64,000 bases of DNA, from NCBI RefSeq assembly GCF_005876985.1, contig NZ_VAHD01000002.1:558001-622000 (forward strand), given 5' to 3'. The notes under the pieces are model-generated. The model ran no database searches, had not been told where the DNA came from, and worked only from the letters and a program-made list of their open reading frames with translations. This document shows positions 30,384 through 35,816 of this stretch, one piece after another. The first letter of the stretch is position 1; each line of letters begins with the position of its first letter. A program made the position numbers and the translations under genes. This DNA is from Rhodoferax bucti (GTDB lineage: Bacteria; Pseudomonadota; Gammaproteobacteria; Burkholderiales; Burkholderiaceae_C).

Positions 30384-31796
30384 ATGACTTCTGCTGCCCC
30401 TTCTAGCCCTTTGCGCTCCTCCCTCCGCACCCCTGAATTGCTCGCCCCTGCCGGCTCGCTGGCCATGTTGCAAACGGCCTTGGCCTTCGGCGCCACGGCG
30501 GTGTACGCGGGCCAGCCGCGTTACAGCTTGCGCGTGCGCAACAACGACTTTGGCAGCCTCGATGTGCTGCGCGCCGGCATTGAGTACACGCACGCGCAGG
30601 GCAAGAAGTTTTATCTGGTGTCCAACATCTTCCCGCATGGCAACAAGACGCAGAGCTACGTGAAAAACATGCAGCCGGTGATCGACCTCAAGCCCGACGC
30701 GATGATCATGTCCGACCCCGGCCTCATCATGCTGGCGCGCGAGGCCTGGCCGGAGATGGAGATTCACCTCTCGGTGCAGGCCAATACGGTGAATGCGGCA
30801 GCGGTGAAGTTCTGGAGCAAGGTGGGCATCAGCCGCGTCATCCTCTCGCGCGAGTTGTCGCTGGACCAGGTGGCGCAAATCCGCCAGGACTGCCCGGACA
30901 CCGAGCTGGAGGTGTTTGTGCACGGCGCGCTGTGCATTGCTTACTCAGGCCGCTGCCTGCTCTCGGGCTACTTCAACCACCGCGATGCCAACCAGGGCAG
31001 CTGCACCAACTCTTGCCGCTGGGACTACAAGACACATGCGGCCCAAGTCGATGCGAGTGGTGATGTGCTGAGCCCTCAGCGCAGCGGCCACGCCTGCGGA
31101 CAGGGCAGCACGGTGCCCATCGAGGCGCACCAAAGCATTGCTTATTTGCTGGAAGAGAGCCAGCGCCCCGGTGACTACATGCCCATCGAGGAAGACGAGC
31201 ACGGCACCTACGTGATGAATTCCAAAGACTTGCGCGCCATCGAGCATGTGCAGCGCTTGGTGGAAATCGGCGTCGACTCGCTCAAGATTGAAGGCCGCAC
31301 CAAGAGCCCGTATTACGTGGCCCGCACTGCGCAGGCTTACCGTGCCGCGATTGACGACGCGGTGGCAGGCCGTGCGCTCAACCCCGAGCTGCTGGGCCAG
31401 CTCGAAGGCCTGGCCAACCGGGGCTACACCAGCGGCTTCTTCCAGCGCCACACGCCTGAGGCCACCCAAAACTACCTGCGCGGCTACTCCGAGAGCGGGC
31501 GCAGCCTGTATGTGGGCGATGTGCTGGCGTTTGATACAGAGCGCGGCCTGGCGCAGGTGAATGTGCGCAACAAGTTTGCGGTGGGCGACCGGCTGGAAAT
31601 CATCCACCCCGCCGGCAATGTGGATGCCACCCTGACCCGCATGGAAAACGCCGAGGGACAAGCCATGGACTTGGCGCCCGGCAGCGGGCACACGGTGTGG
31701 GTGGACTTGCCGCAGCAGGCGGTGGGCGCGTTTGTGGCCCGCTATGTACAGCCGGAAGCACCGGCAGTGGCCGAACCAGTCGTTGCTATGGTTTAA
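30384..31796 (+). CDS. trhP: Peptidase U32 family protein, tRNA U34 hydroxylation protein TrhP-like
   Basis: A 470-residue U32-family protein of the YegQ/TrhP type, which acts in prephenate-dependent formation of 5-hydroxyuridine at tRNA position 34. It has PELLAPAGSLAML at the start and the U32 signature EVFVHGALCIAYSGRCLLSGY with a following Cys pair (GSCTNSCRW) that probably binds an iron-sulfur cluster. The ATG at 30384 is chosen because the frame upstream lacks homology. Its last three residues (AMV) and the TAA stop come from a 48-bp dispersed repeat. Confidence 0.9.
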   Translation: MTSAAPSSPLRSSLRTPELLAPAGSLAMLQTALAFGATAVYAGQPRYSLRVRNNDFGSLDVLRAGIEYTHAQGKKFYLVSNIFPHGNKTQSYVKNMQPVIDLKPDAMIMSDPGLIMLAREAWPEMEIHLSVQANTVNAAAVKFWSKVGISRVILSRELSLDQVAQIRQDCPDTELEVFVHGALCIAYSGRCLLSGYFNHRDANQGSCTNSCRWDYKTHAAQVDASGDVLSPQRSGHACGQGSTVPIEAHQSIAYLLEESQRPGDYMPIEEDEHGTYVMNSKDLRAIEHVQRLVEIGVDSLKIEGRTKSPYYVARTAQAYRAAIDDAVAGRALNPELLGQLEGLANRGYTSGFFQRHTPEATQNYLRGYSESGRSLYVGDVLAFDTERGLAQVNVRNKFAVGDRLEIIHPAGNVDATLTRMENAEGQAMDLAPGSGHTVWVDLPQQAVGAFVARYVQPEAPAVAEPVVAMV

Positions 31797-31832
31797 GGAG
31801 CTACTCGCGCAAGCTGCACAAGCGCTGAAGGC
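31785..31832 (+). repeat. 48-bp dispersed element, copy 7 (supplies the trhP stop codon)
   Basis: It reads GCTATGGTTTAAGGAGCT, ACTCGCGCAAGCTGCA, then AAGCGCTGAAGGC. It starts in frame inside trhP (Ala-Met-Val) and its fourth codon is the TAA stop; the remainder is intergenic. Confidence 0.85.
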
Positions 31833-31849
31833 CGATTTGGCTTGATGTG

Positions 31850-32596
31850 TCAGCGCTCGAACCGGCCTTGTAGCAGGGCTTGGCGGGTGGTGGCATCGAA
31901 CTTCTCAATCGCGTAACGCAGCGTGGTGCGGGGTAGGGCGGCGTAGTGGGTGCGCAAGAAATCCAGCAGCCGCGCCTCGTCGCGCTTGCCCAGTTCGCGC
32001 AGCATCCAGCCGCAGGCCTTGTGCATAAGGTCGTGCGGGTCGCCCAGCAGCTGGGCGTAAAGCCTGAGCGCGTCGTCAAAGTCGCCTGCGCGAATGAAGG
32101 CAAAAGTGCTGAGCACGGCGATGCGCCGGTCCCACAGCACGGGCGATTCGGCCAGTTGCCAGATCACACTGCGATCACGCTGGAGCAGGTAGGGGCCGCT
32201 GATGTAGGGGGCCGAGCCGTCCACCAGGTTCCAGTTGTTGATGCGCGCGCGCTGCGCCATGAAGCAGTCGTACACCGCCGTCTGCGTCGCCTCGTCGCCT
32301 TTGGCAAAGCGCCGCACCATCACATCTAGCGCCAGCAAGCGCACTTCGTTGTAGGGGGACTGCAGCAGGGCGGCGCAGTCGGCGAGCATGAGGGTGTTGA
32401 ACTGGCGTGCGGTCTCGCGGATGAGTGGCACGCGGATGCCCAGGAAGCGGTCGCCCTCGCCGTATTGCCCCGGGCCGCTTTGGAAGTAGCGCGCAGCCGT
32501 TTGGGCTTTGCCGGCATCCGCCCATGCGAACAGCGCACTTTCGGCTGCGCGGGCCTCGGGGCTAACTTTGACTGTTGTATCAGTTGCGAAAAACAT
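31850..32596 (-). CDS. DNA alkylation repair protein (AlkD-like)
   Basis: A 248-residue all-helical HEAT-like protein of the AlkD family, DNA glycosylases that excise N3/N7-alkylated purines. The typical NNWNLVDGSAPYISG and LMHKACGWMLRELGKRD segments are present. The ATG at 32596 (MFFATDTT) is chosen; a TTG at 32641 would overlap the upstream nuclease gene. It lies 11 bases behind that low-GC gene on the same strand but returns to normal base composition. Confidence 0.87.
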   Translation of the reverse strand: MFFATDTTVKVSPEARAAESALFAWADAGKAQTAARYFQSGPGQYGEGDRFLGIRVPLIRETARQFNTLMLADCAALLQSPYNEVRLLALDVMVRRFAKGDEATQTAVYDCFMAQRARINNWNLVDGSAPYISGPYLLQRDRSVIWQLAESPVLWDRRIAVLSTFAFIRAGDFDDALRLYAQLLGDPHDLMHKACGWMLRELGKRDEARLLDFLRTHYAALPRTTLRYAIEKFDATTRQALLQGRFER

Positions 32597-32607
32597 CACT
32601 TTCGGAG

Positions 32608-33732
32608 CTAACGGTTGCCGTGTGGAAACATTCGCGTCCAATCAGTTGGTCCGATCTTTATGGCGAAAAACTTGTTCCTAAGCTGTTTTAGTACTCCTAG
32701 CGTTTCAAGGTGCTTGAGATACTTCCAAAGCGCAATGCTGTCTCCGTTAGGGACTTGCGGTTTCACTTCAAAAGCTAAGCGAAGCCAAGCGAGGCAATCT
32801 TCATGTTCGAAATCGATGCAAAGGAATTCTTCAGGACCAAATTTTTCCACTCTGGCGATATAAACCAACACCGCTGATTGCCACACTTCACGTGGAGTAC
32901 TGAATGAGAGTTCCCAAGGTACAAATGTGCTGAATTTTTTCATTTGACCTTCTGTTAGCCCAAGCTGACGAATATTTCGTTCCAGCTTGTCGAGAGGGGG
33001 CATGTTTCTGTAGCGGCGAAATTTTTCAGCCCTTTCTAGAGCACGTTGAACCCTTCTCGATTCGATCCGTTGAAATTCAATTTTGGCCTGTCTCTCAATC
33101 TCTCTTTGACGATTTGATTCCAATGTATGGAGTTGCTGTGCCTCAGCAGTCATTGCCTCGATATGCTCATTAAAAATCCATATCGCTGGGTACGGAGAAC
33201 TGAAGAGCGTTCTCTCCAGTGCTGTGAAAGTAAAGCAATCTTTAAGAGACTTTAGATTCACTTCAAATGCAGGAATTCTTAGTTCTCGAATCTTGGCATT
33301 TTTTTCCTCATCTACAAAATGAGTGACTGCAATTTCGACCAGATAGCGCTCATCTCCGGCTTTTACCCAAATGTCCGGGCGAATATTGCTCATCCAAACT
33401 TCAAGTTCCACTTCATCTAAGCGTAGCAGCCGTTCTGCGGTGTGTACTTTTGATGGTGCGTATTGCAGTGTGCTTTGGTATTCCACAATCGGCAGACGAA
33501 CCTCTTTGCGCTCTGCAATGATTTGTTTGGCCGCTAGATGGACTGCGGTTTCAAAGCCCCGAGCGCAATCTTCGCCGGGCGCGTGTGCAAAGTGCGGCGT
33601 GGCAGCGCCTTGTCTGGCGATTAGTGGCCTTTTGCACGCAGGACAAACACATCCGCAGGCCTTCCCATTCGGTACGCCATTCGGCTCATAAAGTGTCGAT
33701 TCTTTGAGCCCGAACGGTACGCGCAAGGACAT
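32608..33732 (-). CDS. CoiA-like putative nuclease, low-GC gene
   Basis: A 374-residue protein resembling the competence CoiA-like family. A Cys/His cluster (CVCPACKRP at 28-36, HFAHAPGEDC at 47-56) probably binds zinc. A restriction-type fold is suggested by RPDIWVKAGDERYLVEIAVTHFVDEEK (Asp120, Glu133, Lys144), after which comes a long charged helical region (about 200-260). The catalytic pattern is D-x(n)-E-x-A rather than the canonical ExK, so activity is uncertain. GC in sampled lines is about 45 percent against roughly 65 percent around it, which suggests transfer. Role in DNA uptake, repair or defence unknown. Confidence 0.72.
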   Translation of the reverse strand: MSLRVPFGLKESTLYEPNGVPNGKACGCVCPACKRPLIARQGAATPHFAHAPGEDCARGFETAVHLAAKQIIAERKEVRLPIVEYQSTLQYAPSKVHTAERLLRLDEVELEVWMSNIRPDIWVKAGDERYLVEIAVTHFVDEEKNAKIRELRIPAFEVNLKSLKDCFTFTALERTLFSSPYPAIWIFNEHIEAMTAEAQQLHTLESNRQREIERQAKIEFQRIESRRVQRALERAEKFRRYRNMPPLDKLERNIRQLGLTEGQMKKFSTFVPWELSFSTPREVWQSAVLVYIARVEKFGPEEFLCIDFEHEDCLAWLRLAFEVKPQVPNGDSIALWKYLKHLETLGVLKQLRNKFFAIKIGPTDWTRMFPHGNR

Positions 33733-33740
33733 ATTCGACG

Positions 33741-35816
33741 TCAGCGCCCGCGCAAAAACAAGCTGTCCAGCTCCTTGAGTGTGAGCTGGCGCCAGGTGGG
33801 GCGGCCATGGTTGCATTGGTCGCTGCGCTCGGTGGCTTCCATGTCGCGCAAGAGCGCGTTCATTTCTTCCAGCGTGAGCTTGCGGTTGGCGCGCACCGCG
33901 CCGTGACAGGCCATGGTGCCCAGAATCTCGTTTTGGGCGCGCTGGATGACGGTGCTGGCGTCGTGTTGCGCCAACTCGGCCAGCACGCTGCGAGCCAGCT
34001 CTACCGCATCGCCTTGGGCCAGGGTGGTGGGCACGGCGCGCACGGCCAGGGTTTTGGGCGAGAAGGGGCTGATCTCCAGGCCCAGCGTGTTGAGCGTGGC
34101 TACATGTGCCTCGGCGGTGGCCACTTCATCCGGCGTGGCGGCGAAGGTGGCGGGGATCAGCAGGGGCTGGCTGGCTAGCGGGTGCACGCTGCCGTCGGGG
34201 GCGGTGAGGCTGATTTGTGTTTTCAGCCGCTCGTAGACGATGCGTTCGTGGGCAGCGTGCATGTCTACGATGACCAGGCCTTGGTTGTTTTCGGCCAGGA
34301 TGTAGACGCCTTGCAGTTGGGCAATCGCGCGGCCCAAGTGCCAAGCGTTTTCGTTGCCATCGCGGCCGAGGGGCCACGCCTCTTCGCTTGCGAGACGGCT
34401 GGGGGGCTGCGGGCTCTGCTCCGTGTCCCCCGCCCGCTTGGCGGGCTCCTCCTTGACCTGCGCAGAGCCCGCAGCCCCCCAGCCTTCTTGGGTCGTAGCG
34501 TTGCGCTGCCAGAGCAGGCTGAGGTCGTTGACGCGGTGGCCGATCAAACCTTCTTCTGTTTCAAATTTGATAGCGGGTTGCGCACTGTACATGGGCGCTA
34601 CCGGCTTGTTCGGCACATAACTTCCCGGTGCGGGCAGGGCGTTGGCGTCACCCGTGTTGCCGAACAGGCTGGGTGCCTGGGGCTGGCCGGCGGTAGTGCC
34701 AGCCGCGGCTGCAGCGCGTGGGGCGGCCAAGGTATCTTCCACCGCATGGCGCACGGCCTGGTGCACTTCGCGGCTGTCGCGGAAGCGCACTTCGATTTTG
34801 GTGGGGTGCACGTTCACGTCCACCCGCGTCGGGTCCATGGCCACGTAGAGGGCGTAGACCGGTTGGCGGTTGCCGTGCAGCACGTCTTCATAGGCGCTGC
34901 GGGCTGCGTGGGTAAGCACTTTGTCGCGCACAAAGCGGCCGTTCACGTAGCAAAACTGCTGGTCGCCGCGCGAGCGGGCGGCGTCGGGCACGCCGGCGCG
35001 GCCCCAGACCCGAAGGGGCTGCTGTCCATCCCGGCGCAGGGCGGGTTGGCCGAATTCGTTGGCTTGGCTGCTGTGCCAGTCCACCCGCACGCTTTGGGCC
35101 AGGAACTCGGGGCCCAGTACGTCAGACAAGCGCTGGTCCAGCGCGGCGAGTGCAGCGTCGATCGGGGCATCGGCCAGCGGCACATCCAAGCAGCGGCGCC
35201 ACTGCTCGATCAGTTTGCCTTCGTGCCAGATGGCAAAGCCCACATCAGGGCGGGCGAGGGCGTGGCGGCGTACGGATTCGATGCAATGTGCCAGTTCGGT
35301 GGCGTCGGTTTTCAAAAATTTGCGGCGTGCCGGGGTGCTGTAAAACAGCTCTTTGACTTCGACGGTGGTGCCCTGGCTGCGTGCCACCGGGCGTAGCTCG
35401 CCGGTGCGGCCATCGAGCAGATAGGCATCATTCAGGCCGCTAGCCCTCGACAAGATTGCGCAGTCAGCTATGGAATTGATAGCGGCCAGCGCCTCGCCGC
35501 GAAACCCCATGGTCGCCACGCTCTCCAGATCGCGCAGATTGCCGATTTTGCTCGTGGCGTGGCGCTTGAAGGCGATGGGCAACTCGTCGCGCAGGATGCC
35601 CTGGCCGTCGTCTTCCACGCTGATCAGGCGCACGCCGCCGGCCAGCAGGCGCAGGGTGACTTGGGTGGCGCCGGCGTCCAGCGCGTTGTCCACCAACTCG
35701 CGCACCACGCTGGCGGGGCGCTCCACCACTTCACCGGCCGCAATCTGGCTGATGAGTTCGTCGGGCAGTTCGCGGATAGGGCGGCGGAGAGGGGGAGTAA
35801 GCGGTGCATTCACCAA
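33741..35816 (-). CDS. mutL: DNA mismatch repair protein MutL, endonuclease type
   Basis: A 691-residue MutL. The GHKL ATPase shows ELVDNALDAGA (Mg-ATP), DDGQG and GFRGEAL motifs. The C-terminal domain has DMHAAHERIVYE, a DQHA(x2)E(x4)E endonuclease motif with Met for Gln, plus a terminal QCNHGRPT. It therefore probably nicks DNA itself, as in bacteria lacking MutH. Three repeats lie in the frame: a 48-bp element at residues 112-127 beside GFRGEAL, another at 405-419 in the linker, and an 88-bp inverted-repeat element at about 445-474. The gene is nine bases upstream of the CoiA-like gene. Confidence 0.95.
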   Translation of the reverse strand: MVNAPLTPPLRRPIRELPDELISQIAAGEVVERPASVVRELVDNALDAGATQVTLRLLAGGVRLISVEDDGQGILRDELPIAFKRHATSKIGNLRDLESVATMGFRGEALAAINSIADCAILSRASGLNDAYLLDGRTGELRPVARSQGTTVEVKELFYSTPARRKFLKTDATELAHCIESVRRHALARPDVGFAIWHEGKLIEQWRRCLDVPLADAPIDAALAALDQRLSDVLGPEFLAQSVRVDWHSSQANEFGQPALRRDGQQPLRVWGRAGVPDAARSRGDQQFCYVNGRFVRDKVLTHAARSAYEDVLHGNRQPVYALYVAMDPTRVDVNVHPTKIEVRFRDSREVHQAVRHAVEDTLAAPRAAAAAGTTAGQPQAPSLFGNTGDANALPAPGSYVPNKPVAPMYSAQPAIKFETEEGLIGHRVNDLSLLWQRNATTQEGWGAAGSAQVKEEPAKRAGDTEQSPQPPSRLASEEAWPLGRDGNENAWHLGRAIAQLQGVYILAENNQGLVIVDMHAAHERIVYERLKTQISLTAPDGSVHPLASQPLLIPATFAATPDEVATAEAHVATLNTLGLEISPFSPKTLAVRAVPTTLAQGDAVELARSVLAELAQHDASTVIQRAQNEILGTMACHGAVRANRKLTLEEMNALLRDMEATERSDQCNHGRPTWRQLTLKELDSLFLRGR
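34397..34484. repeat. 88-bp inverted-repeat element inside the mutL linker
   Basis: The arms at 34397-34419 and 34462-34484 are perfect 23-bp inverted repeats (starting GGCTGGGGGGCTGCGGG). The 42-bp loop contains a smaller hairpin, CCCGC TTG GCGGG-like. It is in frame and codes a Ser/Pro/Lys/Glu-rich stretch at about residues 445-474 of MutL. It is distinct in sequence from the 48-bp family. Confidence 0.88.
34558..34605 (+). repeat. 48-bp dispersed element, copy 8 (inside the mutL linker)
   Basis: It begins GTTTCAAATTTGATAGC and ends GGGCGCTACCGGC, closest to copy 1 at its 5' end. Antisense to mutL, it codes VAPMYSAQPAIKFET. Confidence 0.72.
35436..35483 (-). repeat. 48-bp dispersed element, copy 9 (inside the mutL ATPase domain)
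   Basis: On the minus strand it reads GCTATCAATTCCATAGCT, ACTGCGCAATCTTG, then CGAGGGCTAGCGGC. In the sense direction it codes AINSIADCAILSRASG, directly behind the conserved GFRGEALA motif. Confidence 0.85.

What the first reader, a model, noticed from the sequence alone, without database searches (positions are those of the whole stretch)
32608..33732. Low-GC CoiA-like nuclease gene inserted beside mutL
The gene has a clearly lower GC than both neighbours and encodes a Cys/His zinc cluster plus a putative restriction-like core (Asp120, Glu133, Lys144 in an EIAVTHFVDEEK context). It sits between an AlkD-like gene and mutL, so it may be a transferred DNA-processing or defence gene that settled in a repair cluster. 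The catalytic residues differ from the canonical pattern.
Basis: partly seen in the sequence, partly recalled or inferred. Interest (0 to 1): 0.55.

Follow-up and report, generated by a model that had tools for sequence, protein, structure and literature searches.

The report
Acquired CoiA-type nuclease behind mutL
A bacterium carries, wedged directly behind its DNA-repair gene mutL, a single foreign gene for a probable DNA-cutting enzyme related to the competence protein CoiA; most relatives searched lack it, which suggests a small travelling defence or DNA-processing gene.

Summary
The gene is real (32608-33732, minus strand, 374 aa) and is the lowest-GC kilobase of the window. It was acquired: 2 of 103 genus genomes gave a strong match, and in ten close relatives mutL runs straight into alkD. 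It encodes a CoiA_N zinc domain, a PD-(D/E)XK nuclease core modelled with high confidence, a long helix and an unresolved C-terminal domain. D120, E133, K144 and E157 are invariant in 23 aligned relatives; the site is D...ExA...K, not CoiA's published D...ExQ. The other genus carrier (G330) also has it 8 nt behind mutL, followed by a second copy of the mutL 3' end and a decayed alkD. A 49%-identical copy in another order is again a lone low-GC gene, missing in a sister species. More distant relatives occur on plasmids, in phage recombination regions and near defence genes. Best reading: a lone, spreading CoiA-family nuclease, most likely acting on incoming DNA (defence), expressed by read-through from mutL; recombination helper and homing-type gene are rivals. 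No activity was tested.

The parts
32608..33732 (-). CoiA-family nuclease gene, 374 aa
   Evidence: ORF and translation; Pfam CoiA_N 27.2 bits, cut-off 26.3; GC 0.471, GC3 0.433
33565..33657 (-). CoiA_N zinc-type domain, residues 26-56 (C26, C28, C30, C33, H47, H50, C56)
   Evidence: Pfam residues 28-57; C26, C28, C30, C33 and H50 in 23 of 23, H47 and C56 in 22 of 23 aligned relatives; zinc binding itself is inferred
33157..33561 (-). PD-(D/E)XK nuclease core, residues 58-192; putative active site D120 (33373-33375), E133 (33334-33336), K144 (33301-33303), also E157
   Evidence: AlphaFold model, blocks covering residues 101-160 at pLDDT 92-94; VIA-align rows over 58-192; D120, E133, K144, E157 in 23 of 23
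33007..33168 (-). long helix, residues 189-242, probable linker
   Evidence: model
32611..33006 (-). C-terminal domain, residues 243-374, fold unresolved; winged-helix is a guess from sequence only
   Evidence: pLDDT about 50 or lower in nearly all 10-residue blocks; mean 47 when residues 240-374 are folded alone
33733..33740 (-). 8-nt leader between mutL stop and ATG, CGTCGAAT; G330 has CGTCGAAC
32564..32607 (-). right junction: stretch that takes the place of the usual start of alkD; homology to relatives resumes at about 32563; a remnant of a mutL 3' end is not demonstrable
   Evidence: alignment with relatives; 1550 of 5000 shuffles score as high against the G330 remnant
33741..35816 (-). 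mutL, upstream neighbour, full set of domains
   Evidence: Pfam
31850..32596 (-). alkD-like gene, downstream neighbour (ATG start inferred; the ORF opens at TTG 32641)
   Evidence: Pfam DNA_alkylation; ORF list and alignments

Best explanation
A horizontally acquired, lone gene for a CoiA-family, probably metal-dependent DNA nuclease. Shown: acquisition, domain build, invariant active-site residues, a predicted nuclease core, purifying selection. Inferred: it is transcribed with mutL by read-through (same strand, 8-nt gap), its zinc domain and C-terminal domain hold DNA, and D120/E133/K144 with a divalent metal cut it; its most likely job is to destroy or process incoming phage or plasmid DNA (defence).
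For: Strong match in 2 of 103 genus genomes. mutL is followed directly by alkD in 11 of 71 distinct genus loci compared, ten of them in the window's 14-row mutL clade. GC3 0.433 against 0.80 for the adjacent mutL. Nuclease core in the model; of the 50 VIA-align rows listed (Z 5.2-7.2) most are, by their titles and recall, PD-(D/E)XK proteins. D120, E133, K144, E157 in 23 of 23 relatives aligned. dN 0.108, dS 1.09 over codons 1-190 between the two genus copies. Relatives: one directly before an anti-phage dCTP deaminase (PADLOC 4.4e-166), one within 2-6 kb of HsdM/HsdS and one within 2 kb of Wadjet JetA; matches in 57 plasmid records. A CoiA domain has been found in an E. coli anti-phage system (PMC9519451, passages).
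Against: No good match to a defence model: PADLOC gave only PD-Lambda-1 at 0.024 (residues 183-237, the helix) and DruB1 at 0.026 (residues 28-58, the zinc domain). The defence neighbours are contexts I picked, not a counted enrichment against controls. Phage-contig relatives beside RecT and in regions with YqaJ point to recombination instead. The gene itself has no defence neighbour among the genes examined beside it here. All fold Z are under 8. NCBIfam gave no hit. No activity, metal, substrate or expression was tested.
Confidence: 0.5

Rival explanations
1. A recombination helper: the nuclease trims incoming or replicating DNA so that it can be annealed or recombined, as proposed for CoiA in competence and as phage neighbours suggest.
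For: Relatives sit directly beside RecT in phage contigs L122 and L125, and RecT lies within 5 kb in L147 (Pfam). YqaJ recombinase domains lie about 4-5 kb away in L164 and L124 (the L124 relative has lost the nuclease residues), DnaB directly after in L121, and a PD-(D/E)XK nuclease about 3 kb away in L126. CoiA itself is tied to uptake and recombination (PMC1189080, passages).
Against: The two genus copies and the G948 copy are lone genes without a recombinase beside them, and they are sporadic; competence genes are usually conserved (recalled).
Confidence: 0.25
2. A homing-type selfish gene: the nuclease cuts gene ends that lack it and is copied in during repair, so the gene spreads alone and lands behind stop codons.
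For: Three lone copies behind the stop codon of a resident gene in two orders. G330 has a second mutL 3' end after the gene (0 of 1000 shuffles as good in six of ten comparisons; 2, 2, 4 and 36 in the other four) plus alkD sequence, as co-conversion could leave. The VIA-align list includes the catalytic domain of a homing endonuclease, I-Bth0305I (Z 6.0, rmsd 4.0, 81 aligned).
Against: The duplicated end is seen in one genome, a 75% complete MAG; the window's right junction shows no significant remnant; the G948 target is a different gene; the fold match is generic; relatives on plasmids and phages were not seen as inserts in conserved genes.
Confidence: 0.13
3. A functional partner of MutL in mismatch repair.
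For: Same strand, 8-nt gap, in both genus carriers.
Against: 97 of 100 genus genomes searched have a mutL match, but only 2 of 103 this gene; the G948 relative lies behind another gene.
Confidence: 0.04
4. An old vertically inherited gene lost in most relatives.
For: Same site and nearly the same leader in two members of the genus.
Against: The carriers are isolated tips in the mutL tree. GC3 is near 0.44 in both while 4-fold sites of the second half are saturated (identity 8 of 33) and mutL GC4 is 0.87.
Confidence: 0.04

Closest known systems
CoiA competence protein family (COG4469, PF06054; N-terminal domain PF25164)
   Same: CoiA_N domain just above the Pfam cut-off followed by a PD-(D/E)XK-type core; several plasmid relatives are annotated 'competence protein CoiA family protein'
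   Different: Active site D...ExA...K with a TH motif instead of the published D...ExQ; no Pfam match over the nuclease core; lone acquired gene, no competence context seen
COG4636/DUF820 predicted nucleases
   Same: Same kind of fold (3ot2 Z 5.6, rmsd 3.4, 90 aligned; 1wdj Z 5.3, rmsd 3.8, 91 aligned) and, by the 2005 paper, a migrated active-site lysine (passages)
   Different: 13% identity over the aligned part; a zinc domain is not part of that family as far as I recall
CoiA-domain anti-phage system of Vassallo et al. 2022 (PMC9519451)
   Same: A CoiA domain in a tested defence locus (passages)
   Different: Which protein it is, and how similar to this one, could not be compared here
SpyCIM1-type islands in mutL (PMC4689407, PMC3430984; starts of abstracts in a listing)
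   Same: mutL as a site that receives foreign DNA
   Different: They enter the 5' end as phage-like islands by site-specific recombination; this is one gene behind the 3' end, with no recombinase beside it

Membership tests
CoiA family | CoiA N-terminal domain (PF25164) | tested here: met
   27.2 bits against a cut-off of 26.3; 11 of 11 members of alignment A4 match at E up to 1
CoiA family | D...ExQ active site (PD-ExQ variant) | tested here: not met
   E133-I-A135; position 135 is A in 14 of 23 and Q in none; the variant is taken from PMC1189080, passages
CoiA family | Role in natural transformation | not testable with these tools
   -
PD-(D/E)XK superfamily | Core fold | tested here: met
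   Model residues 58-192 and the VIA-align list; best Z only 7.2 and best Foldseek PDB E-value 0.012, so the support rests on the list as a whole
PD-(D/E)XK superfamily | Conserved acidic pair and lysine | tested here: met
   D120, E133, K144 in 23 of 23; lost in two phage-contig relatives, L123 and L124, which were left out of that count
Known anti-phage systems | Match to a defence model | tested here: not met
   PADLOC best E 0.024 for the window protein; none at E up to 1 for the L145 and L002 copies
Free-standing homing endonuclease | Cuts the uninterrupted allele of its own insertion site | not testable with these tools
   -
Free-standing homing endonuclease | Inserted at a site that is uninterrupted in relatives | tested here: met
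   Uninterrupted mutL-alkD junctions and the G837 site; shared by any acquired gene

The most novel reading that the evidence does not exclude
A one-gene mobile unit in bacterial chromosomes: a CoiA-type nuclease of the PD-(D/E)XK fold that spreads by homing-like gene conversion into the space behind stop codons of housekeeping genes, duplicating the gene end as it goes in, with mutL as a repeated target.
Probability: 0.12. Interest if true: 0.78.

Novelty: new variant of a known kind. Interest (0 to 1): 0.42.

Why it matters
CoiA-family proteins turn up on plasmids and phages, yet the searches made here found little testing of them outside competence. This lone acquired copy, with uninterrupted sites in close relatives and a precise set of putative catalytic residues, is a simple system in which to ask whether these nucleases defend, recombine or spread themselves.

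Tried and rejected
A mutL-end remnant at the window's own right junction: 1550 of 5000 shuffles score as high against the G330 remnant, and 11 to 317 of 1000 against ten mutL ends (the 11 is uncorrected for ten tries); not claimed. Close relatives on known plasmids or phages: 57 plasmid records, all under 60% identity, best-ranked row 33% over 95% of the protein; 1 weak phage record. Viral contigs with the single protein as query: none confirmed. Direct repeats round the window and G948 copies: only short or diverged families that I took for chance; that tool did not list the G330 mutL-end repeat either, which I found by alignment. C-terminal domain folded alone: mean pLDDT 47, not searched further. 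Foldseek against PDB: no match under 0.001; the VIA-align second look has Z under 8 throughout, which its note says can be a common arrangement, and its top row is a mitoribosomal protein. An integron-cassette reading was considered from GTTAGC at about 32561 and 32607 and dropped: the G948 copy leaves only 9 nt after its stop; no attC model and no Rfam search were run.

Literature: 'CoiA-like'+'defense' gave 2 papers, 'CoiA'+'nuclease'+'competence' 26 (20 listed), 'CoiA'+'anti-phage' 8, 'competence protein CoiA'+'plasmid'+'hypothetical' 6. I read passages of three: PMC9519451 (a CoiA domain in a defence locus), PMC1189080, and PMC11481870, where the word is only an author's name. The rest I saw as listings. 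On these searches I saw no report of this gene. Searches on homing endonucleases were seen as listings only and gave nothing that I used.

Dropped before counts: before the 23-sequence count I left out L065, L123, L124 and 11 long or partial relatives. The genus census at E up to 0.001 listed 5 of 100 genomes; three of those (G299, G325, G374) match only part of other proteins and fall out at 1e-10.

Full report
What is there. A 374-aa gene lies on the minus strand at 32608-33732 between mutL and an alkD-like gene. Its GC is 0.471 in a 0.627 window; among 1125-nt stretches starting outside 31400-34900 none falls below 0.554. Pfam finds one domain, CoiA_N, just above its cut-off (27.2 against 26.3 bits); NCBIfam finds nothing, PADLOC and PHROGs only weak partial matches.

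Acquired. In the genus, 2 of 103 genomes match at E up to 1e-10: the window's genome and G330, a 75% complete assembly; among the 51 genomes that are at least 90% complete and at most 5% contaminated it is 1. G330's contig has the same length and match position as MAG KLAP5, locus L002. At E up to 0.001 three more of 100 genomes appear, each matching only part of another protein. More widely, relatives of any length were found in 18 of 299 family genomes (E up to 0.001), 8 of 300 order genomes and 10 of 369 class genomes (E up to 1e-8; the samples overlap). I compared the region behind mutL in 71 distinct genus loci, the window and L002 included; the downstream DNA held ran from 21 nt to 8 kb, for most loci 1.5 to 3 kb. 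In 11 of them alkD follows mutL directly; in one a 401-aa gene lies between; elsewhere EamA or other genes follow. The window's mutL sits in a supported 10-row clade (97/88) whose other members lack the gene; G330 lies outside the supported 20-row clade (96/86).

Same site twice. In both genus carriers the gene starts 8 nt after the mutL stop, with a leader of CGTCGAAT or CGTCGAAC. In G330 the gene's stop codon is followed by a second copy of about the last 43 nt of mutL, then the start and, read by eye, the end of a decayed alkD, then the EamA gene that follows mutL in many relatives. Of ten mutL ends compared with that remnant, six gave 0 of 1000 shuffles as good, the others 2, 4, 2 and 36. 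Among the stretches held, an alkD close behind mutL was seen only within the window's wider clade, so the G330 block was probably brought in from there; an ancestral alkD lost in G330's own relatives is not excluded. The same test on the window's own right junction was not significant.

Not long-term residents together. The two copies differ at 40% of third positions in codons 1-190 and 63% beyond, yet both keep GC3 of 0.43-0.44 beside mutL genes of 0.80-0.81. At shared 4-fold sites identity is 46 of 75 in the first half and 8 of 33 in the second (Fisher p 0.0007), so the gene looks mosaic: the end next to mutL was exchanged more recently. Two readings stay open: separate entries at one site, or one entry followed by exchange of alleles.

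A third lone copy. Among 369 genomes of the class, G948, of another order, carries a relative 49% identical over residues 2-368. It too is a lone low-GC gene (0.476; 3-kb flanks 0.655 and 0.691), 51 nt after the stop of a 279-aa gene and 9 nt from the end of an ABC1/UbiB-type kinase gene. In its family 1 of 7 genomes has it; the sister species G837, 94-95% identical in the flanks, has an intergenic stretch without it. The three copies form one supported clade (100/99).

Nuclease. With an 11-sequence alignment the first 240 residues are mostly modelled at pLDDT 80-94, with dips at 21-30, 81-100 and 231-240. VIA-align rows over residues 58-192 are, by title and recall, largely PD-(D/E)XK proteins: SSO0001 (a Cas4, recalled; Z 7.0), Hjc resolvase (6.6), AddAB, EndoMS, VRR_NUC, SfsA, DUF820, McrBC. 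All Z are below 8, the top row is a mitoribosomal protein and two rows are helix matches, so the fold call rests on the consistency of the list and on the motif. In the viral library the best match is EsV-1-12 (1.5e-8) and the fourth a phage 'competence protein'. Across 23 relatives C26, C28, C30, C33, H50, H65, D120, E133, K144 and E157 never change. Published CoiA is a D...ExQ enzyme with a conserved Arg where another family has its swapped Lys (PMC1189080, passages); here the Q is replaced and a Lys is fixed. dN 0.108 against dS 1.09 in codons 1-190 says that this part is kept under selection; beyond codon 190 dS could not be computed.

Company of relatives. Of 57 plasmid records with a match, 12 are predicted conjugative, 5 mobilizable and 40 non-mobilizable. 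Of nine IMG/VR loci whose gene was read in full, seven keep the core and two (L123, L124) have lost its residues; a tenth, L166, is cut off. Two lie directly beside RecT; one directly before DnaB; YqaJ or another PD-(D/E)XK nuclease lies 3-5 kb away in others. Among chromosomal relatives, one (L062) lies directly before an anti-phage dCTP deaminase, one (L064) within 2-6 kb of HsdM and HsdS, and one (L067) within 2 kb of JetA. These are contexts I looked at, not a controlled enrichment.

How it most likely works. Shown: foreign gene, N-terminal part under selection, conserved nuclease site, predicted fold. Inferred: expression by read-through from mutL, since by eye no ribosome-binding motif shows in the 33 upstream bases and the gap is 8 nt; metal-dependent cutting of incoming DNA. 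A CoiA domain has been reported in one tested anti-phage locus (PMC9519451, passages). I put defence at about 0.5, recombination helper 0.25, homing-type gene 0.13.

Verdict. A new variant of a known kind of protein, in an instructive setting. The transfer is well supported; the function is open.

Noticed in passing
L107, L105, L081, L083, roughly 70-900 nt behind mutL: In another clade of the genus a low-GC stretch (minima 0.19-0.35 in 150-nt windows) with a small recurring ORF on the opposite strand lies behind mutL; a second kind of insert near the same spot.
   Followed up: partly
L114, L115, L111, behind mutL: Genes of 1104, 750 and 401 aa of ordinary GC take the place right after mutL in three relatives, so this spot changes often.
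   Followed up: partly
L123:5989-7101 and L124:5986-7098: Two phage-contig relatives keep the CoiA_N cysteines but have lost the D, E and K of the nuclease core.
   Followed up: no
L011, L014-L019, L054, L065: Proteins with open frames of about 670-765 aa hold a similar E-(V/I)-x-VTH...K core in their middle behind a zinc-type N-terminus: a larger branch of the family.
   Followed up: no
L062:478-3014 and L064:6025-9035: A CoiA-type gene is followed by a dCTP deaminase-like gene in two genomes of different genera: a possible two-gene unit. PADLOC was run on the L062 deaminase only; the L064 one has a similar sequence.
   Followed up: partly
L153, the empty site of G837: The intergenic site holds a GC-rich repeated stretch that the occupied G948 site lacks.
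   Followed up: no
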